Source of the DNA: Paeniglutamicibacter sulfureus
Lineage (GTDB): Bacteria; Actinomycetota; Actinomycetes; Actinomycetales; Micrococcaceae
Length of the DNA stretch: 64,000 nucleotides
NCBI RefSeq assembly: GCF_030512175.1
Contig: NZ_JAULBL010000002.1
Span: 161,689 to 225,688, forward strand
Direction: 5' to 3'
Below are positions 9,686-64,000 of this stretch, one piece after another. Position 1 is the stretch's first letter; the number at the start of each line of letters is the position of its first letter. Position numbers and translations under genes: made by a program. The notes under the pieces are model-generated. The model was not told where the DNA came from and did not search any database. It saw nothing but the letters and a program-made list of their open reading frames with translations.

Positions 9686-11209
9686 TTAGTGTCCGGCTCC
9701 GAGCTTTCCCCCCATTCGCTCGCGCATCTTCAGGCTGGCCGCGTTCAGGCCCTCGATTTCGACGGTCTTGCCGTATTTCGCGTACTTTGCGGCGATGGCA
9801 TCCAGTGCTGCGATGGTGGAGGCATCCCACAGGTGCGAGTTGTACATGTCGATGACGACGCGGTCGGGATCCTCGGCGTAGTCGAATTGGGTGTAGAGGT
9901 CGTTGGATGACGCAAAGAACAGTTCCCCGTTCACCTCGTACTTGGCGATGGGCTCCCCGAAGTGCTCCTCGATGTGGCGTTCCACGGTGACCAGGTGGGC
10001 GACCCGGTTGGCGAAGAGGACCATGGCGGTGAGCACCCCGACGCCAACGCCGATGGCCAGGTTGTGCGTCCAGACGGTGACGACGACAGTAGCGAGCATG
10101 ACGGTGGTTTCACTCTTGGGCATCATGCGCAGGGTGGAGGGCTTGATGCTGTGCCAATCGAAGGTGGCCACGGACACGAAGATCATCACGGCCACCAGCG
10201 CTGCCATCGGGATCAGCGCCACGATGCCGCCGAGCGCGACGACCAGGATGAGCAGGAAAACTCCGGCCAGGAAGGTGGAGATGCGGGTCCTGGCGCCGGA
10301 GGCCTTGACGTTGATCATGGTCTGCCCGATCATCGCGCAACCGCCCATGCCGCCGAAGAATCCGGTGATGATGTTCGCCGCGCCCTGGCCCCAGGATTCG
10401 CGGGTCTTGTTGGAGCGGGTGTCGGTAACGTCGTCGACAAGCTTGGCGGTCATCAGGGATTCGAGCAGGCCCACGAAGGCCATGGCCAGCGCGTAGGGGA
10501 ACAGGATCTGCAGGGTCTCGAAATTCAGTGGAATGTTCGGCATGAACAACGAGGGCAGGCTCTCGGGCATCTCACCCTTGTCCCCGACGGTGGGGACCGC
10601 CAGGGATGCGACAACCGCAATGAGGGTCAGAACGACGATGGCAACCAGGGGCGCGGGGACCACGGTGGTGAGCTTGGGCAGGCCGAAGACGATCAGCAGA
10701 CCCATGATGGTGAGCGGGTAGACCAGCCAGGGGACTCCGAGCAGTTCCGGGACCTGGGACATGAAGATCAGGATCGCCAGGGCGTTGACGAAGCCGACCA
10801 TGACCTGGCGGGGAATGAACCTCATCAGCTTGGCCACGCCCAGCAGGGCCAGAATGACCTGGAAGATCCCGGCCAGGATCACGGCGGCAATGAAGTAGTC
10901 CACGCCGTGGCTTTTCACCAGCGGGGCGATGACCAGAGCAATGGCGCCAGTCGCCGCGGAAATCATGGCCGGACGTCCGCCCAGGAAAGCGATGGAGACG
11001 GCCATGGTGAAGGACGCGAACAACCCGAGGCGCGGGTCCACCCCGGCGATGATGGAGAAGGCTATGGCCTCGGGGATCAGGGCCAGCGCCACGACCAGCC
11101 CGGCCAGCACCTCGACCTTGAGCAGGCGCGGGGATTTGAGGGTGTGAAGGACGGATTGCCGTTCTTCCGGGGGCAGGATCGGGTGTCCTGCCGTGGTTTT
11201 CGTGGCCAT
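9686..11209 (-). CDS. SulP/SLC26 anion transporter with STAS domain (copy 1)
   Basis: Membrane transporter for an anion such as sulfate or bicarbonate; the substrate cannot be read from the sequence. Residues about 30-380 hold some ten to twelve membrane helices with SulP signatures (LVVALALIPEAIAFSIIAGVDP, GGMGGCAMIGQTMINV). Residues about 400-507 form a cytoplasmic STAS domain (VNGELFFASSNDLYTQF). Length 507 matches small bacterial SulP proteins. It is divergent from merR copy 1 and shares with it a MerR-type operator. A second copy at 44222-45745 differs at only about 30 residues by my count. Confidence 0.92.
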   Translation of the reverse strand: MATKTTAGHPILPPEERQSVLHTLKSPRLLKVEVLAGLVVALALIPEAIAFSIIAGVDPRLGLFASFTMAVSIAFLGGRPAMISAATGAIALVIAPLVKSHGVDYFIAAVILAGIFQVILALLGVAKLMRFIPRQVMVGFVNALAILIFMSQVPELLGVPWLVYPLTIMGLLIVFGLPKLTTVVPAPLVAIVVLTLIAVVASLAVPTVGDKGEMPESLPSLFMPNIPLNFETLQILFPYALAMAFVGLLESLMTAKLVDDVTDTRSNKTRESWGQGAANIITGFFGGMGGCAMIGQTMINVKASGARTRISTFLAGVFLLILVVALGGIVALIPMAALVAVMIFVSVATFDWHSIKPSTLRMMPKSETTVMLATVVVTVWTHNLAIGVGVGVLTAMVLFANRVAHLVTVERHIEEHFGEPIAKYEVNGELFFASSNDLYTQFDYAEDPDRVVIDMYNSHLWDASTIAALDAIAAKYAKYGKTVEIEGLNAASLKMRERMGGKLGAGH

Positions 11210-12006: not shown

Positions 12007-12494
12007 GTGCCACAACGCATAGCACCGGTTACCGATATAGAAGCCCCCTGGACCCCACAGGCGGACTCCAACGAATACATCGCCCACGTGGATGTGAATA
12101 GCTTCTATGTGAGTTGCGAGCGGGCCTTCGACCCGACGCTGATCGGCCGGCCGGTAATCGTCCTGTCCAACAACGACGGCTGCGCCGTCGCTCGGTCGGA
12201 CGAGGCCAAGGCCATGGGCATCGAAATGGGCGCCCCCTGGTTCAAGCTCGCCCCCACCGCCGATTCCCTGGGACTGGTCGCAAAATCCAGCAACTACGAG
12301 CTCTACGGGGATCTCTCCGCCCGAACCATGCAACTGCTGGGCCGGCACTCGGCCTGGGTCGAGGTCTACAGCATCGATGAGGCATTCCTGGGTGTCCGCG
12401 GGACCCTGCCGGAACTGCAAGCCCTGGCCCGACGCATGAAGCAGGACGTGATGGACCACCTTGGACTGCCGGTCTGCGTGGGGATCGCCAAAAC
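12007..12494 (+). pseudogene. umuC: umuC, 5' fragment (Y-family DNA polymerase)
   Basis: The first about 163 codons of an error-prone lesion-bypass polymerase. The palm acidic residues are visible in HVDVNSFYVSCERAFDP and YSIDEAFLG. The reading frame matches UmuC up to GIAKT and then runs into foreign sequence, ending at 12621. The missing part resumes at about 20459 with KTLAKLANKAAKK, which is exactly the next block of the family. It starts at GTG 12007 after AGAGGGA. It was interrupted by the Tn554-like element, so the fragment should lack the thumb and little-finger domains and be inactive. Confidence 0.9.
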
Positions 12495-12689
12495 TACCGG
12501 TACAGCCGAGTATTCGTTAGTGGCCTATTGGACCCGATCCATTCGGGTTCCGTCGTGGAATATGAATTTCGTTTTCAGGACTCGTCGGCACAGTCCTTCC
12601 GTGACCGGAAGGGAACCTTGAGTGGGACAGTCCAACCCGAGCCGGGGTTTCATCAGAGAAAGCTGCATCTGGCCCAAGCAATTCCAGAA

Positions 12690-18852: not shown

Positions 18853-19193
18853 GCGCCCTGCGGGGCCTGTGGCGGGCGGTGGATCCTGGCAGGCTTCGGC
18901 CGCAGGTTTCCGATGGAACCACGGGTCGGTTCACCGGAGACGGCAACGGATTTCTCCTCCACGACGCGGACCTCGATCAGGTCCGAGACCGTGCAGTTCA
19001 GCGCGGCACACACCGCGCCGATGAAGCTCAGGTTCGCCCGCTCGGGTGTCTGGGTAACGAGCCGGAACACCTGTTCGCGGGAGAGGCTGACGCCGTACTC
19101 CTCAAGCAGGGGGATCAACTCGGTGGTCTTGAAGAGCCCTTGGTCCGCCATGATGCGGCGCAAATTCCAGGTGGTCTCAACATGTTTGGTCAT
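18849..19193 (-). CDS. Small HTH protein (TnpC-like)
   Basis: A 114-residue protein with a Cro/XRE-like helix-turn-helix over residues about 10-75 (GVSLSREQVFRLVTQTPERANLSFIGAVCAALNCTVSDLIEV) and a basic, proline-rich tail. It sits between the two recombinase genes and overlaps both by 4 bases, so the three are surely one operon. The size fits TnpC of Tn554 (125 aa), which influences transposition frequency and orientation. A DNA-binding accessory role is inferred. Confidence 0.75.
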   Translation of the reverse strand: MTKHVETTWNLRRIMADQGLFKTTELIPLLEEYGVSLSREQVFRLVTQTPERANLSFIGAVCAALNCTVSDLIEVRVVEEKSVAVSGEPTRGSIGNLRPKPARIHRPPQAPQGA

Positions 19194-20299
19194 GTCAGCT
19201 CCAGGGTGTTGAAGCGGCCCAAGGCGTCCGCCAGGATTCGGTTCTTGTAGTCGCCGCTGACGGAGGTGTAGATGGCCGTCGTTGAGGAGTGCTGGTGGCC
19301 GACCTGCTCTTGGACGAATCGATCGGCATAGCCGTATTCGATCAGATGCGTGACATAGGAATGGCGTAGGCAGTGCAGCGTCAGGGCGGGGTCGAGGCCG
19401 GCTTCGCGCCGCAGGGCGGTGAACCGCCGGTCAATGTACTCCAGGGAGACACGGGTTTTCCGTTCGGTGGGCCAGAGCGCCGGCAGGTCGCCGGGTGAGA
19501 ACAGTGCCCTGCCTTCGTCGACCCATTGCCTCATGCCGTCTATCCACCATGACAGTTCCGGGACGAGCAAGACGGTCCGGCGTTTCGGCACGCTTCCCTT
19601 GCTCGCCTTGCCCCATCGAACATGCATGGCGGCGTACCGTTCCCACTCGGGGACACGGGCATTGCGGTGAAGGTCGTGGAGGTCCAGGCCCCGAAGTTCG
19701 GCCCGTCGCAGTCCGAAGGCATAGGCGGTCTTGAACATCTGAGCGTCCCGCAGTGCTGCCAGCGCGCCCTTCCGTCCTTCACGGATCGAGGATTCAACCC
19801 GTGAATCCGCATAGTCGAACAATGTCTGTATCTCATCGAATGTCAGTGCCCGCCGTGCCGGGCGCCCTTCGTAGTCCGCCACGTGTTTCGTCGTGTTCCA
19901 TGGCAGGCAGATCTGGGAGGGCGTGTTCCCGAATTGGGACTCGCAGATCTCCACCCAGTCATAGTCGGGGCTGATCAGGTAGTTGCAGAAAACCTGCAGG
20001 ATCCCTTGCCGTTGCCTGATGGTCGAAAGCGCAAGTCTCTTGGAACGCATGGAGCTGGTGTATTCTTCCAGGTCGGAGGCTTGCCACTGCCACGGGTAGG
20101 TCCCTGCATACTCGCCGAAGTTCCTGACGGTGGAGGTTCGGCTTTCAATGGTGGCGTCGGCCAGGCTTCGGCTTCGTTGCTGTTGCTCCCAGGAACCGAG
20201 CATGGATTCGTAGACCGCTTCATCTGGATGAAGGGCCGCGGTCCCGGAATCGAGGGATAGCACGTTCCGGAGGTTGCTGACGTCCAAGAATTGTTGCAT
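19190..20299 (-). CDS. Tyrosine recombinase (TnpA-like integrase)
   Basis: Site-specific recombinase of 369 residues. An N-terminal SAM-like core-binding domain (about 30-120) precedes the catalytic domain. Active-site residues are visible: Arg in AFGLRRAELRGL, HCLRHSY (HxxR), His in GHQHSST, and nucleophile Tyr in TTAIYT. It starts at ATG 20299, which lies inside an inverted repeat of GTTGCAT motifs, so the protein may control its own expression by binding there. First gene of the recombination operon and nearest to the right junction of the element. Confidence 0.92.
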   Translation of the reverse strand: MQQFLDVSNLRNVLSLDSGTAALHPDEAVYESMLGSWEQQQRSRSLADATIESRTSTVRNFGEYAGTYPWQWQASDLEEYTSSMRSKRLALSTIRQRQGILQVFCNYLISPDYDWVEICESQFGNTPSQICLPWNTTKHVADYEGRPARRALTFDEIQTLFDYADSRVESSIREGRKGALAALRDAQMFKTAYAFGLRRAELRGLDLHDLHRNARVPEWERYAAMHVRWGKASKGSVPKRRTVLLVPELSWWIDGMRQWVDEGRALFSPGDLPALWPTERKTRVSLEYIDRRFTALRREAGLDPALTLHCLRHSYVTHLIEYGYADRFVQEQVGHQHSSTTAIYTSVSGDYKNRILADALGRFNTLELT

Positions 20300-20331
20300 C
20301 TAATCGATGACTGTATGAATAGATGCAACAA
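20291..20331. repeat. 12-bp inverted repeat at the integrase start
   Basis: TTGTTGCATCTA (20291-20302) and its exact complement TAGATGCAACAA (20320-20331) flank a 17-base spacer and overlap the integrase ATG. The core GTTGCAT also occurs in the dyad at 20430-20446, so both are probably recombinase arm sites. Confidence 0.6.
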
Positions 20332-20429
20332 CTGTCAATGGCCAATTCAACAGGTCAATGGTTAGGCTGAAGTCCCCGGCGCTGCTTCCCGAGCTCTTGG
20401 GCTATTGGCTACGGGTGAATACGTATCCA

Positions 20430-20446
20430 GTTGCATTTTATGCAAC
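20430..20446. repeat. GTTGCAT dyad near the right end of the element
   Basis: GTTGCAT-TTT-ATGCAAC is a perfect inverted repeat 12 bases inside the right umuC junction. It repeats the motif found at the integrase start about 100 bases away. Probably the recombinase recognition site at the right end. Confidence 0.6.
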
Positions 20447-20458
20447 AGTCCATGCTTG

Positions 20459-21304
20459 AAAACCCTGGCCAAGCTGGCCAACAAGGCCGCCAAGAAGAAC
20501 GCCCACCTGGGCGGGGTCTGCGTGTGGGATGCCGTCACCAGGGAAGACCGCGAACAACTCCTGGGCCGGCTGCCCACGGTGGAAATCTGGGGCATCGGCC
20601 CCCGCCTGGCCAAGCGGCTGCTGGGTTTGGGGATCCGGAGCATGAAGGACCTGCGCGATGCCGACGCGGTGATGCTGCGCAACCGCTTCTCCATTGTCAT
20701 GATGCGCACCGTTCTCGAGCTGAGGGGAACCCCCTGCATCCCCATGGAGGAAGAACACGAAATCAAGGGACAGCTGATTTTCAGCCGCTCCTTCTCCACT
20801 CCGATCACCGACACGCACGGCATGGAGCAGGTGCTGGGGATCTACGCCCAACAGGCCTCCGCCCGCCTGCACAAGCACCAGCGGCAGGCCAAGGTGCTCA
20901 CCGCCTGGGCCATGACCAGCTACTACAACACCCACGACAACCATCAGCCCTCGGTGACCGTCGCTCTTCCGGGTCCGACCGCGGACCCGCTGCTGCTCAC
21001 GCGCGCGGCCAAGGCGCTGCTTCCCAAGATCCTGGACGGGGTGAAGTACGCCCGGGCCGGAATCGTGGTGACCGATATCCGACCCACCGGCGCCCAAGAG
21101 ACCTTCGAGCCATTCGTGAACCCCCACGAGGCCAAGGAAATCGGGCCGCTGATCCAGAAGATCAAACAGCGCCACGGAATGAACGCAGTCGGACTGGGCC
21201 TGGCGGGAATGAAGACCGGCCCCGAATGGACGATGCGCCGCGAGATGATGTCACCGCGCTACACCACCCACTGGGACGAGCTGCTGACCGTATACGCCAG
21301 CTGA
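20459..21304 (+). pseudogene. umuC: umuC, 3' fragment
   Basis: The remaining about 280 codons of the polymerase, starting at KTLAKLANKAAKK and continuing through a helix-hairpin-helix segment (IWGIGPRLAKRLLGLGI) and the little-finger domain to a normal stop. Fused in frame to the 5' fragment at 12007-12494 it would give a protein of about 440 residues, the normal UmuC length. A frame opening at 20405 inside the transposon could give an N-terminally altered product but lacks the catalytic palm. Precise excision of the element should restore the gene. Confidence 0.88.
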
Positions 21305-21313
21305 TTGAACTTT

Positions 21314-21767
21314 TACTCACGCACTCGTTTGAGTGAATGAGTAATGCATCATCTACTCCCCGCGGAATCCCGGCGGTTTGAGGGCGTCCTGGGTGCTCGC
21401 TCGCTCACACCCAGGAACCGGGCGCCCCGCTGGCGCGGTGCGGCTGTTGACCTGATCCGCCTTTCGGCGGATCAGGTGCCGGCCTTCGGCCGTCCCCTTT
21501 TTTCGGTTGCTGTCCTTCGGAGTCTATGGCCCGACACCAAGGGCACAAGCCCCTTGCTGCGCTGCGGGGCCAAGCGCCCGGATTCTTTGATCGGCGCTGC
21601 GCTTATTTCCTCACAAAGAATGCCGGTCCCTTGCCCTGCGGGTTGCTGCTCCTTGGTGCTCGGTCCGCTTCATTTCATTTCGCCAGCAACCAAAAAACGC
21701 GGGGGAGAGACAAAGCGCGCAGGCTGGTTCCGCGATCCCCCTCACCCACAGATTGAGGAAAACAACC
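21314..21767 (+). repeat. Structured intergenic repeat, copy 1 (candidate leader RNA)
   Basis: First of three related non-coding units, ending at the start of a 58-codon gene. It begins with the dyad ACTCA-CACTC...GAGTG-TGAGT, then the stems CCTGGGTG/CACCCAGG and CCTGATCCGCC-TTTC-GGCGGATCAGG. The strand TTTTTTCGGTTGCTG (21498-21512) can pair with CAGCAACCAAAAAA (21684-21697), closing a domain of about 190 bases. Inside it, ATTCTTTG pairs with CAAAGAAT. The other copies keep these pairings with some different bases. Frames through it differ between copies, so it is not coding. Confidence 0.65.
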
Positions 21768-21944
21768 ATGAACACGATCAGGGCAACAGACGGAATCCAA
21801 CTCAGCGCAGAAACGGACGTGCTGCTGGCATCCAGACTCGCAGACCACGAGCTGGGTACTGGTTGGGACAAGGGAATCAGCCCGTTCGATCAGCACACAA
21901 TCCTTGGTGAATATCTTGAATTCGTTGGCGAATTTTCAAGCTAA
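21768..21944 (+). CDS. Hypothetical 58-residue protein
   Basis: A small acidic protein beginning MNTIRATDGIQLS at ATG 21768, eight bases after GAGGA. It directly follows repeat copy 1 and precedes the DUF3560 gene by 34 bases, probably in one transcript. The DUF4192 gene after repeat copy 3 begins in the same context (GAGGAAAACAACC then ATG). No function recognised. Confidence 0.55.
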   Translation: MNTIRATDGIQLSAETDVLLASRLADHELGTGWDKGISPFDQHTILGEYLEFVGEFSS

Positions 21945-21978
21945 GTAGTAGCCCCACTAGGAACAAGGAGAACAACAA

Positions 21979-22959
21979 ATGCTGACTATTACGCACACCC
22001 ACGAAGCTGGAACCTTGATTGAGGGAACCATCAAGGGCGACGGCACCGCCGAAGTCCTCAAAGCCAACGGCTGGCGTTGGGGTCGCAGCATCGCCAGCTG
22101 GTTTGTCCCCATGAGCCGCGACCGGATGCCCAAGCTCTACAAGATCGAGGGCACGGCAACCGCACTCCGGGCGGCAGGGTTCGAGGTTGAAACGGACCTT
22201 GACGAGACCACCCGCTCAACGGCCGACGTCGAAGCGGCAAGGATCGAACGCCAAAGCCGGCGCGTCGAAGCCCTGGAAGCCAAGGCCCAGCGCAAGAGCA
22301 CCACAGCCGACGACGCCGAGCGCCGCGCCCGGGCAGCAGGCGACGCCCTGCCTTGGGGAGGCGAGCCAATCAAGATCGGCCACCACAGCGAGAACCGCCA
22401 CCGCAACGCCATCGAAAAGGCACACCGAGCCATGGGCGCATCGGTCGCTGCCGACCGTGACGCCATCGAGGCAGCCGAACGCGCCGCGACGGCAGCCCAC
22501 ACGACGGGCGCACGCTACAGCGTGCAGACCGTCGCAAACCGCATCAAGAAGCTCGAAGCCGACATCCGAGGCACCCAGCGCAACATCGACGGCCGCCGCG
22601 AGTGGATCAAGGACGAAGCCGGCCGGGACATGCTCAGCAACGAACCCATCGGCGTCACCGGAGCATACCGTGAGCGCCTGCTCACGCGGCTAGCTGAACA
22701 AAACGATCAGCTCACCTACTGGAAGCAGATCCGCGCCGAACAGATCGCCACAGGCAAGGCCACCAACTACAGCCGGGAAACCATCAACAAGGGCGACTAC
22801 GTGCGGTACCGGTTCGGCTGGGCCGAAGTGGTGCGAGCCAACGCCAAAACGGTGTCGGTCAAAACCGAATACACCTGGACGGACAAAATCGAATACGAGG
22901 CACTGACCGACCACAAGACAGCAGCCGAATATGCCGAAGCCCGGGCAGCCATCAGCTAG
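21979..22959 (+). CDS. DUF3560 domain-containing protein
   Basis: A 326-residue plasmid/ICE-associated protein. The N-terminal 75 residues resemble the compact domain in which a residue pattern like NGWRWGRSIASWFVPMSRDR recurs in DUF3560 proteins. A long helical, probably coiled-coil region follows (about 80-260, rich in Ala, Glu and Arg), then a small beta domain (GDYVRYRFGWAEVVRANAKTVSV). The function is unknown. Start at ATG 21979 after AAGGAGAA. A Rho-independent terminator follows at once, so this gene ends the unit driven from repeat copy 1. Confidence 0.8.
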   Translation: MLTITHTHEAGTLIEGTIKGDGTAEVLKANGWRWGRSIASWFVPMSRDRMPKLYKIEGTATALRAAGFEVETDLDETTRSTADVEAARIERQSRRVEALEAKAQRKSTTADDAERRARAAGDALPWGGEPIKIGHHSENRHRNAIEKAHRAMGASVAADRDAIEAAERAATAAHTTGARYSVQTVANRIKKLEADIRGTQRNIDGRREWIKDEAGRDMLSNEPIGVTGAYRERLLTRLAEQNDQLTYWKQIRAEQIATGKATNYSRETINKGDYVRYRFGWAEVVRANAKTVSVKTEYTWTDKIEYEALTDHKTAAEYAEARAAIS

Positions 22960-22971
22960 CTAAAAGGAACC

Positions 22972-23008
22972 GGGGGAGGGGGCGCCGTGTGGGTGTCCCC
23001 TCCTTTTT
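22972..23008 (+). terminator. Rho-independent terminator after the DUF3560 gene
   Basis: GGAGGGG (22975-22981) pairs with CCCCTCC (22997-23003) and is followed by TTTTT. Almost the same sequence, including the loop, recurs at 23946-23982. Confidence 0.85.
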
Positions 23009-23010
23009 CG

Positions 23011-23058
23011 TGGTGGTGCGGGCGGCCTCCGCCGCCAGCTCCCCCGGCCGCCGACGCT
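23011..23058. repeat. GC-rich short repeat, copy a
   Basis: A block starting GCGGGCGGCCTCCGCCGCC directly follows the terminator. It recurs at 23986-24034 after the second terminator, and in variant form at 26184-26235 inside a small gene. It can form hairpins (GGCGGCC/GGCCGCC). Function unknown. Confidence 0.7.
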
Positions 23059-23092
23059 GCGCGATGGCCAGGTCCGGCAACATCGCGTCTGG

Positions 23093-23526
23093 TACTCACG
23101 GACTCGTTTGAGTGAATGAGTAATGCATCATCTACTCCCGGCGGAATGCCGGGGGTTTCAGGGAGTCCTGGGTACTCGCTCGCTCGCACCCAGGAACCGG
23201 GCGTCCGCTGCGCGGCCGGCTGTTGACCTGATCCGCCTTTCGGCGAATCAGGTGCCGGCCTGCGGCCGTCCCCTTTTTTCGGTTGCTGTCCTTCGGAGTT
23301 TATGGCCCGACACCAAGGGCACAAGCCCCTTGCTGCGCTGCGGGGCCAGCCCGGCAAATTCTGTGTCCGGCGCTGCGCTTATTTCCGGACAAACAATTGG
23401 CCGGCCTGCCCTACGGGTTGCTGCTCCTTGGTGCTCGGTCCGCTCATTTCATTTCGCCAGCAACCAAAAAACGCGGGGGAGAGACAAAGCGCGGGGCTGG
23501 TTCCGCGATCCCCCTCACTCACAGAT
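23093..23526 (+). repeat. Structured intergenic repeat, copy 2 (candidate leader RNA)
   Basis: Second copy, same order of elements as copy 1. The closing helix is kept: TTTTTTCGGTTGCTG (23274-23288) with CAGCAACCAAAAAA (23458-23471). The internal helix is made of different bases from copy 1: here GTCCGG pairs with CCGGAC while the flanking ATT/AAT ends remain. That is the pattern expected of selected base pairing. It ends about 90 bases before the next small gene. Confidence 0.65.
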
Positions 23527-23615
23527 TGCTTCAAGCAAACAGGCAATCATGGTAGGCCGTGAATAGCATGGCCCTACGGTTAGTTTCCACTACCTAGAGA
23601 ACGAGGACGAAGACG

Positions 23616-23936
23616 ATGATTTCCAACGAACAGCTCCAGGCCGTTCTTGACGAGCACGTTCCGGCAGAACTCCAAGGAGACTTCGAACTGCGCGCCATTT
23701 GCCATTCCATTGCAGCCATCCGATATCCGGTGAGCCCTTCTGAGGCAAGACTCTTTTCCTCACCAATTCTGATGCCAGCCGACAGCCCAGAAGAAGAGGA
23801 CTACTTCAAGGACACCGGCATGATCCTCTTGGAATCCTGCGACCAGCGCCTCACGTGGCGAATCGGCGAGATCCAGGACGCCGTTTTTGGCATGTTCTCA
23901 ATAGAAGAAGAAACTGACCCTATAGCAGAGCAGTAA
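23616..23936 (+). CDS. Hypothetical protein
   Basis: A 106-residue acidic protein (many Glu/Asp, pI clearly low) with no membrane segment and no recognised family. It starts at ATG 23616 after GAGGACGAAGACG. It stands alone between repeat copy 2 and a terminator, so it is a monocistronic unit of the same kind as its neighbours. Confidence 0.6.
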   Translation: MISNEQLQAVLDEHVPAELQGDFELRAICHSIAAIRYPVSPSEARLFSSPILMPADSPEEEDYFKDTGMILLESCDQRLTWRIGEIQDAVFGMFSIEEETDPIAEQ

Positions 23937-23945
23937 CCACGCGGT

Positions 23946-23982
23946 GGGGGAGGGGGCGCCGTTTGGGTGTCCCCTCCTTTTT
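23946..23982 (+). terminator. Rho-independent terminator, second copy
   Basis: The same GGAGGGG/CCCCTCC stem with a T5 tail as at 22972-23008, located 10 bases after the preceding stop codon. The duplication includes the GC-rich repeat behind it. Confidence 0.85.
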
Positions 23983-23985
23983 CGT

Positions 23986-24034
23986 GGTGCGGGCGGCCTC
24001 CGCCGCCAGCTCCCCCGGCCGCCAGACGCTGCGC
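23986..24034. repeat. GC-rich short repeat, copy b
   Basis: Near-identical to the block at 23011-23058 and again directly behind the terminator. The pair shows that terminator plus GC block moved or was duplicated as one unit. Confidence 0.7.
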
Positions 24035-24086
24035 GCGGTTACAGTGCCCACTGCACGCACGGGTTTCCCGGTGCCTAGCCTGGGCG

Positions 24087-24429
24087 TGCTGACCTTCGGT
24101 CATGATGGCGCGGTGCGCCACTGCTGGCCACTTCGCAAGCGGCGGCCATGTGCTGGCCACTTCGCAAGCGGCGGCCATGTGCTGGCCACTTCGCAAGCGG
24201 CGGCCATGTGCTGACCTTCGGTCATGATGGCGCGGTGCGCCACTGCTGGCCACTTCGCAAGCGGCGGCCATGTGCTGGCCACTTCGCAAGCGGCGGCCAT
24301 GTGCTGACCTTCGGTCATGATGGCGCGGTGCGCCACTGCTGGCCACTTCGCAAGCGGCGGCCATGCGCTGACCTTCGGTCATGATGGCGCGGTGCGCCAC
24401 TGCTGGCCACTTCGCAAGCGGCGGCCATA
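24087..24429. repeat. Two-component tandem repeat array (A/B units)
   Basis: Eleven units without spacers. A is 35 bases beginning TGCTGACCTTCGGTCATG. B is 29 bases beginning TGCTGGCCACTTCGCAAGC. The order is A B B B A B B A B A B, with almost no variation except GCGCTGACC at the last A. Each A has two small hairpins (GACCTTCGGTC and GGCGCGGTGCGCC), and each B has an imperfect GGCC...GGCC dyad. Not CRISPR, because there are no unique spacers. Iterons, a partition site or a recombination hot spot are possible. From 24430 to 24628 nothing further is recognised. Confidence 0.85.
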
Positions 24430-24628
24430 CGAGTTTCCGGCCACCTCGTTTGGCTGTGGATGGCCTGACATTTCATCGCAGGCGTGTCCACCCACCCACA
24501 ACACAGCACTTCACCCACCGCCCCGACGCACAAACTCGCCACACCCGCTACCGCGCATGGACGACTTGCGTGGACGGCACCGTGGATGAGCTGACCGGAA
24601 AGCCCCGGGGGATCGTTGATCAGTTAAC

Positions 24629-25024
24629 CGGGGGTTTGAGGGCGTCCTGGGTACTCGCTCGCTCGCACCCAGGAACCGGGCGCCCCGCTGGCGCGGTGCG
24701 GCTGTTGACCTGATCCGCCTTTCGGGAAATCAGGTGCCGGCCTTCGGCCGTCCCCTTTTTTCGGTTGCTGTCCTTCGGAGTTTATGGCCCGACACCAAGG
24801 GCACAAGCCCCTTGCTGCGCTGCGGGGCCAGCCCGGCAAATTCTGTGTCCGGCGCTGCGCTTATTTCCGGACAAACAATTGGCCGCACCTGCCCTACGGG
24901 TTGCTGCTCCTTGGTGCTCGGTCCGCTCATTTCATTTCGCCAGCAACCAAAAAAACGCGGGGGAGAGACAAAGCGCGGGGCTGGTTCCGCGATCCCCCTC
25001 ACCCACAGAATGAGGAAAACAACC
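24629..25024 (+). repeat. Structured intergenic repeat, copy 3 (candidate leader RNA)
   Basis: Third copy, lacking the first about 60 bases with the ACTCA/TGAGT dyad. The closing helix TTTTTTCGGTTGCTG (24756-24770) with CAGCAACC plus A-run (24941-24955) is intact. The GATC hairpin has decayed on one side (GGGAAATCAGG). It ends at the Shine-Dalgarno sequence of the DUF4192 gene with the same last bases as copy 1. Confidence 0.65.
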
Positions 25025-26014
25025 ATGAAAAGCATCAAAGCAACCACCATGGCCGAGGTCACGGCAGTCGCCATCCACGGAATCGGCTTCATCCCCACCT
25101 CGTCGGTGGTTCTCATGCTGACGAACGACAACGGACTGCTGGCCACCCTGCGCGTGGATGCCAGCCCCGAAGCACCCGCCGAGGAATGGGCACAGAACAT
25201 CACCACGTACGTTCACCGCGTGAGCGATGCCAACAGCGTCATCCTGTTGAGCTTCGAGAACGACTTGGCCATGACCACCCAGCAGTTCCGCGCGTTGGGC
25301 GACACCTTGGCCCGCGCGGGATGCCCCATCAGGAACTCGGTGCTCATCACCGATGGATGGGTCATGGACTACGACGGCGATTCAACCGACGCGGTGGAAT
25401 TCTCCACCGTCGCCGAATCCAACGCGGCACTGGCCCTGATGTTCAGCACCACCAAGGCCGCCAAGATGGCCGCAGACATTCCGGCCTGCACCACACCGGC
25501 CAGCATCAGCGACCTAGAGAAATTCATCAACGACGCCCGCCACATGGGCTTCGAGGACGCCGAAACCCGCGCCGTGGTGCGCGGCACGCTCACCGACATG
25601 GTCGGAGGCTACCGCCACAACGGGAAGGTCAGCCCCCAGCACGCCGCATGGCTGGCCGGAATCTGCACCAACAAGAACGTGCGCGACCTGCTCTTCGCCT
25701 CGCTGGCCACCACCAGCTACGACGCCGAAACGATGAGCGCCGTCCTGATGGGGGAGAAAGCACCGGAAGATTGGGAATTCTTCCTCACGGGTGCCGACGC
25801 ACTCTACACCGCGCTTCAATTCATCCCGGAAGCCAGCCGCGCCGACCTGCTGGCCGGAGTCGGATGGACACGCTGGATCAATGGCAAGGGAAGCGAAGCC
25901 ATGAAATTCCTGGCCCTCGCGCTCGTTGCCGACCCCGAGCACCGCCTCACCACCCTGTTGATGAAACTGATCAACACCGGCGAACTCCCGAGGTCCGCCA
26001 GCACCAAGCACTAA
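25025..26014 (+). CDS. DUF4192 family protein
   Basis: A 329-residue protein resembling the actinobacterial DUF4192 family: IHGIGFIPTSSVVLMLTNDNGLLATLRVD at the start, then alternating alpha/beta segments and a helical C-terminus. The function is unknown; members occur on actinobacterial plasmids and chromosomes. The start is ATG 25025, eight bases after GAGGA. A much longer frame entering from 24734 runs through the non-coding repeat and is rejected. A 19-bp stem-loop follows the stop. Confidence 0.75.
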   Translation: MKSIKATTMAEVTAVAIHGIGFIPTSSVVLMLTNDNGLLATLRVDASPEAPAEEWAQNITTYVHRVSDANSVILLSFENDLAMTTQQFRALGDTLARAGCPIRNSVLITDGWVMDYDGDSTDAVEFSTVAESNAALALMFSTTKAAKMAADIPACTTPASISDLEKFINDARHMGFEDAETRAVVRGTLTDMVGGYRHNGKVSPQHAAWLAGICTNKNVRDLLFASLATTSYDAETMSAVLMGEKAPEDWEFFLTGADALYTALQFIPEASRADLLAGVGWTRWINGKGSEAMKFLALALVADPEHRLTTLLMKLINTGELPRSASTKH

Positions 26015-26033
26015 CCCAACCACCCCAACCACC

Positions 26034-26076
26034 AGCTAGGTGGGGCGACGTTCCCAAAACGTCGCCCCACCTAGCT
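26034..26076 (+). terminator. Perfect 19-bp stem-loop after the DUF4192 gene
   Basis: Arms 26034-26052 and 26058-26076 are exact complements around the loop CCCAA. There is no T-run after it. It is a strong RNA hairpin that could terminate or protect the transcript end. Confidence 0.6.
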
Positions 26077-26103
26077 ACACTCACACCAAAAGGGAGTCCA
26101 CAC

Positions 26104-26541
26104 ATGAGCATCGACATGGCCTTTGCCCACCACCCCACGCAGCTGCGCGACGAATCCCCCTGCGAGCCGCGGCCACGGATTTCGGCGGCGGCCTCCGCCG
26201 CAAGCTCCCCCGGCCGCCGCACCAGGGCGCTGCGCGCCCCGGACACCCCGGCACGGGGAAACCCTGACCATTTCTCTCACCAAGGCTTGTCTTACGTACT
26301 CATGCGCTTTTACCCCGGCGACGAACCGGCTCAGCCCGTGCCGCACCAGCGGGCCACCGCCGAGATCCCCACCAACAGCGGCAGCCTGGTCCTTCCGGTC
26401 GAAGTCACCGCCCGCACCACACATCTGGTGCACGTCGCGTGGATCGATGACACCGGGGAACTCATGGGCATCTGGTGCCCCACCGATATGGTCAAACCAG
26501 CACGGGAAACAGGAACAACCAGTAAGGAAGCCCGCCCATGA
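26104..26541 (+). CDS. Hypothetical plasmid protein
   Basis: A 145-residue protein starting at ATG 26104 after AAAAGGGAG. Residues about 25-50 are encoded by a variant of the GC-rich repeat (ISAAASAASSPGRR), so that repeat has been absorbed into a gene. The C-terminal 80 residues are a beta-rich segment (LVLPVEVTARTTHLVHVAWID). The stop overlaps the next ATG by 4 bases. No known family. Confidence 0.6.
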   Translation: MSIDMAFAHHPTQLRDESPCEPRPRISAAASAASSPGRRTRALRAPDTPARGNPDHFSHQGLSYVLMRFYPGDEPAQPVPHQRATAEIPTNSGSLVLPVEVTARTTHLVHVAWIDDTGELMGIWCPTDMVKPARETGTTSKEARP

Positions 26542-31727: not shown

Positions 31728-32885
31728 TTAGGCGAGCCGGTATGCCTTAGAGTGGGCGAAAAGGGAGCTCAGTTCGTCGAGAAGTATCTTGAAGAGATAG
31801 CCGTGGTCCCCGGCTTCTCGGATGAGAAAATCTACCGTCACCGCACCCTTCCTGATCAACCCGATCAGCTCTTCTGGCCGCGGATTGCGGGTGTGTTGCA
31901 CTCTGTGGAACCGGAAGTATTCCTGATCCCCAATCCGTTGGACGGCGGCCTCTACCCAGACGGATTCGGCGTGTTTGCTCATCAGGCGGTCCTGCAACTG
32001 GGCCATATCCCACAGCACGACTTCGCGGGGGCTCAATTCGTTCTGGCGAATCCGGAGCAGGTCAGCGTCGCGATCGATTTGAAGGTACAACTCCTGTGTA
32101 TTGGCCTTTTTTGCACTAATTGTGCACGAGAGGGAACGCTCCCCGGCCTTTTCGCTGCCGAAGGCATTGAGCAATTGACCAGAACCGGCGTACGCGCTTC
32201 GCGTCCAGTCTGGGACCTGAGCGAACATCGTGGCGCGTCTGCTGCCCGACCTCGCTGATTTGATCTCGATACCGTGGTAATCAGCCGTCTTTGACGAGTT
32301 CATTTGGATCCCAAGCTCGGACTCGAGCAACCGGCCCACAGACGTCGATCCTTCGACTGGTGCCGCAATGAAGCCCTTTTGAGCCACTGTCTTGAGCTTC
32401 GCGAAAAGTTCCGGGAAGACACTGGGTTCCACAGGTGGCGGTTCTACGGACTCCTTGCCCGACGATGCTTCGTCGGCAAGGATCAGCGAATCGTGAAGGT
32501 TTTCCCGTGAAGCGTTGACAAGACCCAGACCATTTCCGCGTCGGATGCACAACACCAGGTCGCCGGCTCCGGCAATGTCGGGAAGGTTCTTTATCCAGAC
32601 CCTGCGGTCCCCGCGCTTGGTCTGGTATAGGGAAGCCGTTGATTCCACCAGCTGGCCAGTCGGGTGCATGAGAACAGCGGGAACAATGACCTTGTGATCA
32701 GGACCCAGCTCCTGCCGGGTGAAGTCGTGGAGGTCCGCCTCCAGAAGAAAGTCCCTGAACGGAATGGTTGCATCGAGAATCGCCTTATCCAGACCAAGCT
32801 GGGATGGACGAAGCCACCCGTGGCTTATTTGATGCTGAACCAGCAACGAGATGTTGCGTTTTTCCAGTTCCGTGCGTGTGATCAT
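31728..32885 (-). CDS. Type II restriction endonuclease, MvaI/BcnI-like
   Basis: A 385-residue protein; the second half carries a catalytic block typical of the MvaI/BcnI family: GRLLESELGIQMNSSKTADYHGIEIKSAR, with Glu, Asp and ExK in the expected order. MvaI and BcnI cut CC(W/S)GG, so a related site is likely but not proven. The first about 190 residues are extra compared with MvaI and may be a DNA-recognition or methyl-sensing domain. It starts 20 bases after the methyltransferase gene stop, so the pair is one operon. Confidence 0.75.
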   Translation of the reverse strand: MITRTELEKRNISLLVQHQISHGWLRPSQLGLDKAILDATIPFRDFLLEADLHDFTRQELGPDHKVIVPAVLMHPTGQLVESTASLYQTKRGDRRVWIKNLPDIAGAGDLVLCIRRGNGLGLVNASRENLHDSLILADEASSGKESVEPPPVEPSVFPELFAKLKTVAQKGFIAAPVEGSTSVGRLLESELGIQMNSSKTADYHGIEIKSARSGSRRATMFAQVPDWTRSAYAGSGQLLNAFGSEKAGERSLSCTISAKKANTQELYLQIDRDADLLRIRQNELSPREVVLWDMAQLQDRLMSKHAESVWVEAAVQRIGDQEYFRFHRVQHTRNPRPEELIGLIRKGAVTVDFLIREAGDHGYLFKILLDELSSLFAHSKAYRLA

Positions 32886-32905
32886 TTTGTTGCAGCCCCC
32901 GGTGC

Positions 32906-34297
32906 TCAGTCGGCTGGGCCGATATCCAGCACTTCTGCAATCATCCTACCCACGGCGTGCGCCAAGAAAGGCGACACCGCATTTCCGACCTGCGAATACT
33001 GTGGCACCTCAACCCGCCGCCGCAAGGAACCGGTGGTTTCCTTCCCCTGAAACTCAAAATCGTCGGGGAATCCCTGAAACCGTGCCAACTCCCGGACCGT
33101 GAAAATCCGGGGGACACTAGGATGCACATAGTCGTCAGGCAGCGTAACCACCGTGGGAGCCTGAGAGTTCCAATTCAGCGCCTTCTGGGAATGCTTCTTT
33201 GTAGCCAGCCGTCGCATCACATTCACGATTTGGTGCTTGTCGTCCGCTATTGTCGTCCCGTCCAGCGCGACCGCGGGGAACCGCACGTTCTTCATCAATT
33301 CCAGAACTGCGTCATCGGTTGCCATTTTCCGTGCCATATCGGTCAGCAACCGCGGCGGAATGGAATTGTCGCGCATCCATTGGTACAGGCGGAATCGCTC
33401 CTGGGTTCGGGGAGCGTGCCGACGCGGGTTTTGGTTGCCGGGGCCTACCTGTGCGGGCGGGGCGGGGGGAAGGCCCCAAGTTTCCTTGGTCCGGACCTGG
33501 TTTCGGAACTCTTCAGTTCTTGCGCTGTGCACCTCAGGCAAAACAGATTGCAGGTCGGCGATCGCATCCGCAATGGTAGGCGCTTCTTCCCTTGTAACCA
33601 CCGGCCTCGGCGCCAGAGGCGGCACAGACGATTCTGTCATCTCGTCGGTGAACGATGAGCGCCAAACGGCCCCACTGGAGAAGACGCCCTTCGCTTCAGC
33701 GATGTCGCTGCGCAGGCCAATGATCATCAGACGCGGCCGGTTCTGCGGGGCGCCATAATGCACCGCGTTTACAGCGACCCCCTGAACTTCATACCCTTGC
33801 CCGGTTTCCCTCAGCGCCTGCTGAAGTTGGTCGAATGCCGAGTCTTCGGAGGTTGAGAAGCGGTGACTCATGCCCACAACATTTTCGATAACTACTGCCT
33901 TGGGCGATGTACGCTCCACGAAAGCGAGATACTCCCAAGGGAGCTTGTTGCGGACGTCGTCCGGATTCCGTCGACCAGCCAGCGAGAAACCCTGGCACGG
34001 AGGCCCGCCCACTACGAGATCCAGGTTTTCGGCGGCGAGTGCGTCCATGATCACGTCGTTTTCTAGGATTCTACCCAGCTCTGAGACAGCCACTCCGTGC
34101 TTGGCCTGAAGCTCCAGCGGACGTTCGAGATATGCATGCCAGTCACTGAGTTCAGGGATGGGCTCGAAGAAGTTGTGGTAAAGCGTTCGGGCTGCCATAT
34201 CCGATTTCTCAACAGCCAGTAAAAGGTCTCCTCCGGCTCTTTCAATGCCAAGGGAAAGGCCGCCGCAGCCAGAAAACAAGTCAACGTACTTCATCAT
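32906..34297 (-). CDS. DNA cytosine-5 methyltransferase
   Basis: A 463-residue m5C methyltransferase. Motif I DLFSGCGGLSLGIERAG, motif IV GGPPCQGFSLAGRR with catalytic Cys, motif VI ENV, motif VIII QNRPRLMI and motif X YSQVGNAVSPFLA are all intact. It protects host DNA from the endonuclease encoded next. The start is ATG 34297 (a second ATG follows at once). The target-recognition region lies at about residues 255-385, which would set sequence specificity. Confidence 0.92.
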   Translation of the reverse strand: MMKYVDLFSGCGGLSLGIERAGGDLLLAVEKSDMAARTLYHNFFEPIPELSDWHAYLERPLELQAKHGVAVSELGRILENDVIMDALAAENLDLVVGGPPCQGFSLAGRRNPDDVRNKLPWEYLAFVERTSPKAVVIENVVGMSHRFSTSEDSAFDQLQQALRETGQGYEVQGVAVNAVHYGAPQNRPRLMIIGLRSDIAEAKGVFSSGAVWRSSFTDEMTESSVPPLAPRPVVTREEAPTIADAIADLQSVLPEVHSARTEEFRNQVRTKETWGLPPAPPAQVGPGNQNPRRHAPRTQERFRLYQWMRDNSIPPRLLTDMARKMATDDAVLELMKNVRFPAVALDGTTIADDKHQIVNVMRRLATKKHSQKALNWNSQAPTVVTLPDDYVHPSVPRIFTVRELARFQGFPDDFEFQGKETTGSLRRRVEVPQYSQVGNAVSPFLAHAVGRMIAEVLDIGPAD

Positions 34298-62768: not shown

Positions 62769-62955
62769 GTGTCAATCTCCAATGTATTCGAAAGGTTCGT
62801 CGGGGCCACAGGTTGTGCGGGAACCTTGTGCGTTTTTTGGTCCGGCGGGGACCGGACCGTCCACCCCTAGGTTACCGGGCTGGGACCATGTTTTGACGGA
62901 GCCCCCAATAACCGGTTCCATACGTGCGTGGCCGCATCCAGCGGAGCAAGCTATA

Positions 62956-62974
62956 GACTTAGCATAGCTAAGTC
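62956..62974. other. Candidate origin-of-transfer hairpin
   Basis: GACTTAG-CATAG-CTAAGTC is a perfect 7-base dyad in the 290-base gap between the small gene and mobC. Gene order (small helical gene, dyad, mobC, relaxase) is the usual place for oriT. The nick site cannot be identified from sequence alone. Confidence 0.4.
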
Positions 62975-63061
62975 GGCTTGTCGCTTTACTGCGTTTCGCT
63001 GGCATGGGACACTTGTACCTGGTGGTTCGAGTGGTGTTGCACTGGGCGAAGGGATGAAGCG

Positions 63062-63454
63062 GTGGCAGTTGCGCGTGAACGGAAGCGGCAGGCCAACATC
63101 GGCGGTGGCCGAAAGCATCCTGTGCAGTTGAAGCTTTCCGTTGCCGAGAAGACCACTTTGAAGATCCACGCCGACGAGCTTGGTGTGAGCATTCAGCGGC
63201 TTTTGGTTGAATCAACCCTTTCCTCTTTTCAGGGCGAAACCCTCACCGAACGACGCGATCTTTTGACCGCGCTGTTGCAGCTTCAACGCGGCCTCGCTGC
63301 GGTTGGAAACAACATCAACCAGATTGCCCGTGCTGCAAACGCAACAGGCGAAATCAAGGGAGACCTTGAGGCTTCGCTCACGCAGTTGCGCGCTTCGGTG
63401 AACAGAATTGATGAAGCGTTGGAGTCGTTGAGGATTGTTGGTGAACCCTCATGA
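63062..63454 (+). CDS. mobC: MobC-like relaxosome accessory protein
   Basis: A 130-residue protein: basic N-terminus, then a ribbon-helix-helix (HPVQLKLSVAEKTTLKIHADELGVSIQRLLVES) and the MobC signature LLQLQRGLAAVGNNINQIARAAN. It opens oriT and recruits the relaxase (family knowledge). GTG 63062 is the start that keeps the basic segment, with AAGGG upstream. The relaxase ATG overlaps its stop. Confidence 0.88.
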   Translation: MAVARERKRQANIGGGRKHPVQLKLSVAEKTTLKIHADELGVSIQRLLVESTLSSFQGETLTERRDLLTALLQLQRGLAAVGNNINQIARAANATGEIKGDLEASLTQLRASVNRIDEALESLRIVGEPS

Positions 63455-64000
63455 TCCCCAACGTGGTGCGCGGTGGACGCATGAATGGTGTGATGGCCTA
63501 CCTGGTGGGACCAGGCCGCTCCAACGAACATGAGAATCCGCACCTGGTTGCCGGGGACGACCGGGTTACTTTTGCCATTCCGGTTGGCACCTCGTTGGAC
63601 GCCAACCAGGCATTTGAGATCGGCTACATGCTTGATCAGCCGCGCCGCATTCATGAGGCCGAGTTCAACGTTCCCGTGTATGCCCGTGATGATGAATCCG
63701 GTGAGTTCTTGAAGGATGAGGCGGGCAGGAAAATCCGCACCGGTTCCAAGCCCGGCCACGTGTGGCATTGTTCCTTGGCCGTTGAATCCGGTCATGGACG
63801 AGTGGATGATGAGCAGTGGGAGAAGATCGCCACGGAGTTCGTTTCGCGCATGGGTTTCATCGATCCCGATGGTGCAAAGTCCTCGCGCTGGGCTGCAGTT
63901 CACCACGGCGCGTCGAAGAACGGCAACGATCACATCCACCTTGTCGTACAGCTCATCCGCGAGGACGGAACCAAGGCGAACATCAACAACGACTTCCACC
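63451..64000 (+). CDS. Relaxase/mobilization nuclease, 5' part
   Basis: The first 183 codons of a relaxase, cut by the window edge. Actinobacterial relaxase start MIPNVVRGGRMNGVMAYLVGPGRSNEHENPHLV, then the metal-binding histidine motif in GNDHIHLVVQLI. Tyr17 in the MAYLVGPG segment is a possible nucleophile. It nicks oriT and pilots the strand during conjugative transfer. ATG 63451 overlaps the mobC stop. Its presence shows that this DNA is mobilizable. Confidence 0.9.
   Translation, partial: MIPNVVRGGRMNGVMAYLVGPGRSNEHENPHLVAGDDRVTFAIPVGTSLDANQAFEIGYMLDQPRRIHEAEFNVPVYARDDESGEFLKDEAGRKIRTGSKPGHVWHCSLAVESGHGRVDDEQWEKIATEFVSRMGFIDPDGAKSSRWAAVHHGASKNGNDHIHLVVQLIREDGTKANINNDFH

What the first reader, a model, noticed from the sequence alone, without database searches (positions are those of the whole stretch)
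21314..25024. Three copies of a long structured non-coding element in front of plasmid genes, with pairing kept despite sequence change
The units at 21314-21767, 23093-23526 and 24629-25024 share the same order of stems. A long-range helix (TTTTTTCGGTTGCTG with CAGCAACCAAAAAA) closes each about 190-base domain. Inside, copy 1 pairs ATTCTTTG with CAAAGAAT, while copy 2 pairs GTCCGG with CCGGAC at the same place. Such compensatory change is the mark of a functional RNA (or cruciform). Each unit directly precedes a small or DUF gene. Frames through the copies disagree, so coding is unlikely. It could be a new large structured RNA class or a cis-regulatory leader shared by a plasmid regulon.
Basis: partly seen in the sequence, partly recalled or inferred. 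Interest (0 to 1): 0.85.

Follow-up and report, generated by a model that had tools for sequence, protein, structure and literature searches.

The report
Single-stranded-DNA promoters of actinobacterial plasmids
The three repeats look like DNA hairpins that would switch on a plasmid's first genes while it is still entering a new bacterium as a single strand, a trick known from the E. coli F plasmid and here seen in soil Actinobacteria with an unrelated sequence.

Summary
The three copies and their compensated stems are real. They belong to a family found on many plasmids of Arthrobacter and relatives. The RNA-leader reading is probably on the wrong strand. On the strand opposite to the genes, all 82 distinct full copies that I collected carry a -35/-10-like pair; the spacer is 16 nt in 80. 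The pair sits in a hairpin whose arms co-evolve across 16 lineages (0 of 20,000 permutations). Helix mismatches fit folding of that strand better than composition predicts, and G.U wobble is not in excess on the gene strand. A CDS starts 55-85 nt after the core in 41 of 52 copies. On 18 of 18 plasmids with both, every copy is on the strand of the relaxase gene; an oriT-like motif agrees on 13 of 13 MOBP plasmids. Best explanation: a Frpo-like single-stranded-DNA promoter of the conjugative leading region, without detectable sequence similarity to Frpo. The repeats were already noted upstream of DUF4192, DprA and ParB genes; my searches showed no report of this function. Nothing was tested experimentally.

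The parts
21314..21767 (+). Unit 1: whole repeat, from the 5' ACTC palindrome to just before the start codon
21498..21697 (-). Unit 1 core: hairpin inferred to form in the minus (inferred transferred) strand; P1 arms 21498-21512 / 21684-21697, P3 about 21527-21545 / 21644-21667, P4 about 21549-21570, P5 about 21577-21590 / 21612-21627, P6 21633-21645
21521..21526 (-). Unit 1 -10-like hexamer TAGACT on the minus strand, unpaired in the predicted fold
21543..21548 (-). Unit 1 -35-like hexamer TTGTGC on the minus strand, 16-nt spacer to the -10
21768..21944 (+). Gene after unit 1: 58 aa from ATG (63 aa from an upstream TTG), no Pfam match
21979..22959 (+). Second gene after unit 1: DUF3560 protein
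23093..23526 (+). Unit 2: whole repeat
23276..23480 (-). Unit 2 core hairpin with -10 TAAACT at 23302-23297 and -35 TTGTGC at 23324-23319
23616..23936 (+). Gene after unit 2: 106-aa protein, no Pfam match; starts about 136 nt after the core
24629..25024 (+). Unit 3: repeat without the 5' ACTC box
24758..24963 (-). Unit 3 core hairpin with -10 TAAACT at 24784-24779 and -35 TTGTGC at 24806-24801
25025..26014 (+). Gene after unit 3: DUF4192 protein
62942..62985 (-). Candidate origin of transfer: inverted repeat, then nic-like TATAGCTTG|C read on the minus strand; the motif occurs once per MOBP plasmid
   Evidence: nic assignment inferred; P-type nic consensus recalled
62978..63454 (+). MobC/NikA-like relaxosome protein ORF (true start probably near 63063)
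63451..64000 (+). MOBP-type relaxase, 5' part; an open 500-aa ORF continues beyond the window

Best explanation
Each repeat is a single-stranded-DNA promoter of the conjugative leading region. During conjugation the strand complementary to these genes (inferred T-strand, minus in the window) enters the recipient as ssDNA. Each repeat folds into a long hairpin. Its 3' arm supplies the non-template -35 (TTGTGC-like) and -10 (TAnAMT-like) hexamers, with a 16-nt spacer inside helix P3 and the -10 in an open bubble; the 5' arm is the template. RNA polymerase, probably with the housekeeping sigma factor, would start near the hairpin base and read into the gene that begins 55-85 nt beyond the core, before the second strand is made, so that establishment genes (DUF3560, DUF4192, DprA, ParB-family, small unknowns) are expressed first. 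Conversion to dsDNA removes the hairpin and shuts the promoter off. Shown by computation: hairpin co-evolution, hexamers and spacing, strand-biased mismatches, position and orientation. Inferred: T-strand identity, transcription, timing, sigma factor, shut-off.
For: -10-like hexamer with A2 and T6 in 82/82 and T1 in 77/82 distinct copies; -35-like with T1 and G3 in 82/82; spacer 16 nt in 80/82. P3 and P5 arms pair best with their own partners: 16 lineages, own -15.75 / -14.77 kcal/mol, permuted means -10.08 / -7.86, 0 of 20,000 permutations as low; same with 7 lineages. Helix mismatches read on the gene strand are of the types that become G.T, G.A, G.G and A.A on the minus strand: 0.774 in 16 lineages against a permuted mean of 0.651 (9 of 2000 as high), 0.853 against 0.661 in 33 copies at 90% (0 of 2000). 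GNA triloops make up 144 of 337 perfect triloop hairpins on the minus strand, 1.76 per copy vs 0.30 in shuffles; 31 of 70 in the 16 lineage representatives. 19 of the 20 plasmids searched hold matches, 64 in all, one strand per plasmid; same strand as the relaxase gene in 18 of 18 with both. oriT-like motif once on 13 of 13 MOBP plasmids and in the own genome, always on the strand of the elements (the pattern was made from the window and five of these plasmids). CDS 55-85 nt after the core in 41 of 52 copies. Plasmid F has ssb, ParB-family and psiB genes on the strand of tra, upstream of it, and Frpo1/2 fold better on the same relative strand, by 12.8 and 8.9 kcal/mol (no shuffle control).
Against: No transcript or ssDNA assay exists. 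No sequence relation to Frpo: best E 0.25 over 18.5 kb of F. The strand difference in folding energy is partly composition: -6.84 vs -2.79 kcal/mol in dinucleotide shuffles with DNA parameters, minus lower in 82 of 82 vs 209 of 246; with RNA parameters -8.57 vs -5.27, 76 of 82 vs 199 of 246. Among 8 distant loci minus is lower in 5, tied in 1 and not lower in 2. With one copy per lineage (16), A.C against G.U alone (11 vs 5) is not beyond permutation, 450 of 2000 as high. GNA loops on one strand are TNC loops on the other, so this sign discriminates only through known DNA loop stability (recalled) and stem register. The -35 is TAG, not TTG, in 33 of 82. T-strand identity rests on an inferred nic and on relaxase orientation, not on a mapped nick. 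In the window the repeats are 38 kb from the candidate oriT, and on 7 of 18 plasmids the nearest element is more than 7 kb from the relaxase. A same-species genome, G013, has the elements but not the oriT-like motif. 11 of 52 copies have no CDS start at 55-85 nt. P4 gave no support for co-evolution.
Confidence: 0.76

Rival explanations
1. Cis-regulatory RNA leader (or attenuator) on the gene strand: the ~400-nt 5' UTR folds and controls the following gene.
For: Structure and co-evolution; position before genes, 55-85 nt to the CDS in 41 of 52 copies; a GC hairpin followed by a T-run lies at about 21478-21503.
Against: G.U wobble is not in excess over A.C on this strand. The invariant unpaired block reads as a -10 on the other strand. 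The UNCG tetraloop register has stems of 3 bp or more at only 17 of 248 CTNCGG sites, the triloop register at 124. No Rfam match.
Confidence: 0.11
2. Single-strand initiation site for second-strand synthesis: the hairpin recruits RNA polymerase or primase only to prime DNA synthesis; expression of the next gene is incidental.
For: Same strand and ssDNA logic; the title of Masai and Arai 1997 gives Frpo both roles (seen only as a citation).
Against: Up to 6 matches per plasmid, most tied to a gene start at a near-constant distance, which priming alone does not need.
Confidence: 0.08
3. Ordinary dsDNA promoter on the minus strand making an antisense or small RNA that reads leftward through the upstream half of the unit.
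For: The hexamers are also present in dsDNA; the leftward stretch contains stable hairpins in the minus-strand fold.
Against: It does not explain why the spacer region co-varies with a partner arm about 100 nt upstream of that promoter, across 16 lineages.
Confidence: 0.03
4. Dispersed repeat without function (REP-like or recombination target), spread by gene conversion between plasmids.
For: Multiple similar copies on most plasmids.
Against: Compensatory change between lineages less than 70-80% identical, constant spacer, same strand as relaxase in 18 of 18 plasmids.
Confidence: 0.02

Closest known systems
Frpo1/Frpo2 of plasmid F (and ssi sites of ColIb-P9)
   Same: Leading-region position, more than one copy, hairpin in the incoming single strand that carries -35/-10 (PMC9849209 and PMC11541004, passages); neighbouring SSB and ParB-family genes in F; aligned length about 460 nt; better fold on the same relative strand.
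   Different: No detectable sequence similarity to F Frpo (ColIb-P9 not searched); actinobacterial hosts; branched core with P4, P5 and P6; other genes downstream (DUF4192, DUF3560, DprA).
[quoted passage not shown]
   Same: Repeats 5' of Duf4192, DprA and ParB genes on 12 related plasmids, as summarised in PMC10494377 (passages). On pAO1 the model finds copies just before DprA, DUF4192 and a ParB-domain gene, so these are very probably the same elements.
   Different: The 2016 paper was not seen. No ssDNA promoter function is mentioned in the passages read. The set here also covers MOBF plasmids and divergent copies in other families.
Structured RNA leaders (Rfam)
   Same: Long, structured, in front of genes.
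   Different: No Rfam match up to E = 1; the evidence points to the other strand.

Membership tests
Frpo/ssi single-stranded promoters | Lies in the leading region, gene oriented so that the transferred strand is template | tested here: met
   Same strand as the relaxase gene in 18/18 plasmids, within 7 kb of it in 11/18; oriT-like motif agrees in 13/13 MOBP plasmids. T-strand identity itself is inferred.
Frpo/ssi single-stranded promoters | ssDNA folds into a stem-loop that carries -35 and -10 boxes | tested here: met
   Hexamers in 82/82, 16-nt spacer in 80/82; co-evolving stem. Prediction only; the -35 is far from consensus in many copies.
Frpo/ssi single-stranded promoters | Homologous sequence to F Frpo or ColIb-P9 ssi | tested here: not met
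   Model R2 finds nothing in 18.5 kb of F that holds Frpo1/2 (best E 0.25); ColIb-P9 was not searched.
Frpo/ssi single-stranded promoters | RNA polymerase starts transcription from the ssDNA form; early expression in recipients | not testable with these tools
   No expression or in vitro data.
Cis-regulatory structured RNA | Covarying helices, with G.U tolerated on the transcribed strand | tested here: not met
   Covariation yes; G.U not in excess over A.C: 5 vs 11 in 16 lineages, 7 vs 34 in 33 copies.
Cis-regulatory structured RNA | Match to a described family | tested here: not met
   Rfam 15, none up to E = 1 over 20000-26500.

The most novel reading that the evidence does not exclude
An independently evolved class of single-stranded-DNA promoters in Actinomycetota, kept by selection on the transferred strand, that defines an establishment regulon (DUF3560, DUF4192, DprA, ParB-family, small unknown proteins) expressed before the incoming plasmid becomes double-stranded; its leading-region proteins are candidates for anti-defence functions.
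Probability: 0.67. Interest if true: 0.82.

Novelty: new variant of a known kind. Interest (0 to 1): 0.74.

Why it matters
In the passages I read, single-stranded promoters are documented for F and ColIb-P9, and larger surveys used five known sequences plus candidates drawn from a few islands. An unrelated and common actinobacterial version would mean that plasmids arrived at this early-expression switch more than once. Covariation and the strand of the mismatches offer a way to find others without sequence similarity, and the genes behind the elements form a list of unknown proteins likely to act in establishment or against recipient defences.

Tried and rejected
RNAalifold on the MAFFT alignment found only 12 pairs, with helices visibly misaligned; I replaced it by the own-arm versus other-arm permutation test. 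Helix P4 gave no support there with the arms I chose (own -7.7, others -7.0). In the 90% clustering the P1 energies are meaningless (a copy with a missing arm) and are not used. The strand energy difference looked decisive at first (51 of 52 and 52 of 52), but shuffles showed that part of it is base composition. A first regex search for the -10 failed on 9 of 52 copies and mis-anchored others; alignment columns replaced it. An UNCG tetraloop on the RNA strand was considered as the reason for conserved TNC loops and is disfavoured by stem register. Phages: no match with one query. Rows dropped: one search gave 101 matches from the window and 53 loci; 91 were longer than 185 nt and 82 of them distinct; only these entered the tallies. 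Matches outside Micrococcaceae are weak (E 2e-11 to 7e-4). I looked at 5 loci (L075 was shown on the wrong strand there and one stretch was out of range) and at 8, with a loose regex that alone is not significant. The tallies 20 of 396 and 7 of 394 used stricter filters that lose weak matches.
Full report
WHAT IS THERE. The window holds three copies of a 400-455-nt repeat at 21314-21767, 23093-23526 and 24629-25024. The genome has no other full copy. Unit 3 lacks the 5' ACTC-rich box. The ~200-nt core (21498-21697 in unit 1) is closed by helix P1. Inside are a tiny TCC-NNN-GGA hairpin (P2), a long helix P3, and three branches P4, P5 and P6.

HOW WIDESPREAD. blastn of the unit against the plasmid collection finds 10 records; four divergent cores find 58, 18, 59 and 63 records, by the tallies all Arthrobacter, Paenarthrobacter, Pseudarthrobacter or Citricoccus; in the last search 43 of 63 are typed conjugative. 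No phage record matches one query. In genomes, 8 of 15 of the genus and 64 of 395 of the family, in 15 of 32 genera, have a blastn match at E <= 0.001, many of them short. A sequence-only model (R1, from 52 copies) finds 20 of 396 genomes in the order, ten of them outside the family and weak. A second model (R2) finds 7 of 394 in the class, including three genomes of another order with two matches each.

STRUCTURE IS SELECTED. I took 82 distinct full copies (of 101 matches, 91 longer than 185 nt) and grouped them at 80% identity into 16 lineages. The 5' arms of P3, P5 and P1 pair much better with their own 3' arm than with arms of other lineages: P3 -15.75 against a permuted mean of -10.08, P5 -14.77 against -7.86, P1 -14.27 against -11.70 kcal/mol; 0 of 20,000 permutations were as low. 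With only 7 lineages (70%), P3 and P5 still give 0 of 20,000 and P1 gives 42 of 20,000. P4 was not supported with the arms chosen.

WHICH STRAND FOLDS. (a) Isolated mismatches inside P1, P3 and P5, read on the gene strand. In 53 copies (95% clusters): A.C 48 against G.U 13, C.T 58 against A.G 13, C.C 30 against G.G 0, T.T 13 against A.A 2; arms of unrelated copies, which share the base composition, give ratios of 2.0, 2.1, 2.1 and 1.5. On the opposite strand the frequent types are G.T, G.A and G.G, the better tolerated DNA mismatches (recalled). As a permutation test the share of these types is 0.842 against 0.683 in 53 copies (0 of 2000), 0.853 against 0.661 in 33 (0 of 2000) and 0.774 against 0.651 in 16 lineages (9 of 2000). 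A.C against G.U alone is beyond permutation in 53 and 33 copies (1 and 0 of 2000) but not in 16 lineages (11 vs 5; 450 of 2000). In no grouping is G.U in excess, as an RNA on the gene strand should show. By lineage, A.C exceeds G.U in 13 of 16, is below it in 2 and tied in 1. (b) Perfect triloop hairpins on the minus strand have GNA loops in 144 of 337 cases, 128 of them closed by C-G; 1.76 per copy against 0.30 in shuffles. C(GNA)G is an exceptionally stable DNA mini-hairpin (recalled). The same letters read on the gene strand are C(TNC)G; the UNCG RNA tetraloop register there has a stem of 3 bp or more at 17 of 248 sites, the triloop register at 124. (c) Folding energy favours minus in 82 of 82 copies with DNA and 76 of 82 with RNA parameters, but shuffles also favour minus (209 and 199 of 246), so only the excess counts (-6.84 against -2.79; -8.57 against -5.27 kcal/mol). 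In 8 distant loci minus is lower in 5, tied in 1, not lower in 2. (d) The promoter, next.

A PROMOTER IN THE HAIRPIN. Read 5'-3' on the minus strand, the conserved block between P3 and P1 is a -10-like hexamer: TACAAT 23, TAAACT 13, TACGAT 10, TACACT 8, TAGAAT 8 and others; position 2 is A and position 6 is T in 82 of 82, position 1 is T in 77 of 82. Upstream is a -35-like hexamer with T1 and G3 in 82 of 82 (TTG in 45, TAG in 33). The spacer is 16 nt in 80 of 82, although it is a fast-changing arm of P3. In window unit 1: TTGTGC 21548-21543, spacer 16, TAGACT 21526-21521. In the predicted minus-strand fold the spacer is paired and the -10 unpaired. The geometry matters: the 3' arm is the non-template strand and the 5' arm the template, so polymerase would run out of the hairpin base into the gene (inference). 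Six of six weak loci in another order have TTGCGT-N15/16-GAnnAT (loose regex).

WHERE IT LIES. I fetched 20 of the plasmids. On 19 of them the model finds 64 matches, all on one strand per plasmid; two plasmids have a single match. A relaxase gene was found on 19 of the 20: PF03432 on 13 and TrwC on 6. 18 plasmids have both, and on 18 of 18 the relaxase gene is on the strand of the elements; on 11 of 18 the nearest element lies within 7 kb upstream of it. Upstream of the relaxase an oriT-like motif (CGGAGCAAGCTN6TTA, up to one mismatch) occurs once on 13 of 13 MOBP plasmids and once in the own genome, on none of 5 MOBF plasmids searched, and always on the strand of the elements; a same-species genome, G013, lacks it. 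The pattern was made from the window and five of these plasmids, so eight are independent. Read on the other strand it is an inverted repeat, then AGCTTG|C, close to the P-type nic consensus (recalled). So the transferred strand is most likely the minus strand, and the elements lie on the side that enters first. The accessory protein matches MobC and NikA. Genes behind the elements recur: small proteins, DUF4192, DprA and ParB-family, the last directly after the element nearest the relaxase side in 8 of the 10 stretches. The CDS starts 55-85 nt after the core in 41 of 52 copies. In the window the genes are a 58-aa protein plus DUF3560, a 106-aa protein, and DUF4192. The relaxase ORF (500 aa), a TraG/TraD coupling protein and an SLT/M23 peptidase follow beyond the window; it is the only PF03432 match of the genome. 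The candidate oriT is 38 kb from unit 3, with a restriction endonuclease, a cytosine methylase, a weak Abi-like match and a kinase gene in between.

COMPARISON. In plasmid F, methylase, antirestriction, SSB, ParB-family and psiB genes lie upstream of the tra genes on the same strand (the place of oriT between them is recalled). Frpo1 and Frpo2 are 89.5% identical over 468 aligned columns and fold better on the same relative strand (by 12.8 and 8.9 kcal/mol). Frpo is described as a stem-loop of the incoming single strand with -10 and -35 boxes, needed for early expression of the genes behind it (PMC9849209, passages). By sequence the elements show no relation to Frpo (best E 0.25). Membership by homology is therefore not claimed; the claim is that they work alike.

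PRIOR ART. PMC10494377 (passages) reports, citing Mihasan and Brandsch 2016, DNA repeats 5' of Duf4192, DprA and ParB on 12 Arthrobacter-type plasmids; since copies precede just these genes on pAO1, they are very probably the same elements. I did not see the 2016 paper. PMC6305408 (section 17 and passages) mentions such repeats without a function. Searches for single-stranded promoters together with Gram-positive, Actinobacteria or Actinomycetota terms showed no paper on such promoters in Actinobacteria among the titles listed (15 of 43, 15 of 315, 40 of 56, 15 of 89); the stem actino does not occur in the main text of PMC11541004 or PMC12826799 (passages). The library lacks most subscription papers and preprints.

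VERDICT. Observation confirmed. Best explanation: single-stranded-DNA promoters of the leading region (0.76). A known kind of device, in a new and apparently independent family.

Noticed in passing
window 12007-12621 and 20405-21304: A umuC-type polymerase gene is split: IMS N-terminal domain on the left, IMS_C/DUF4113 on the right, with about 7.8 kb between that holds a phage-integrase-family recombinase (19190-20299), a small ORF before it and an ORF with a weak zinc-ribbon match. On pA40H2 a recombinase cluster lies between umuD and the polymerase gene.
   Followed up: partly
window 24086-24427: Array of 29-nt and 64-nt repeats made of small hairpins (7 copies of each family in the array) between the unit 2 gene and unit 3.
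   Followed up: no
window 22972-23033 and 23946-24007: Two 62-nt copies (87% identical) of a terminator-like GGGGA...TCCCCTCCTTTTT sequence after the genes of units 1 and 2, so that unit, gene and terminator look like repeated cassettes.
   Followed up: no
window 21314-21360 and 23093-23139; L006:2827-2893; L005:13840-13905; G000:C1:350332-350378: ACTC/GAGT palindrome at the 5' end of units 1 and 2, also found alone on plasmids and as a short chromosomal fragment; possibly a dsDNA operator.
   Followed up: no
window 26034-26076: Perfect 19-nt inverted repeat after the DUF4192 gene.
   Followed up: no
window 31728-34297: MvaI/BcnI-type restriction endonuclease next to a C5-cytosine methylase, between the elements and the candidate oriT.
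   Followed up: no
window 9686-11209 and 44222-45745: Two 507-aa transporter-like ORFs that look nearly alike by eye, perhaps duplicated cargo; not compared with a tool.
   Followed up: no
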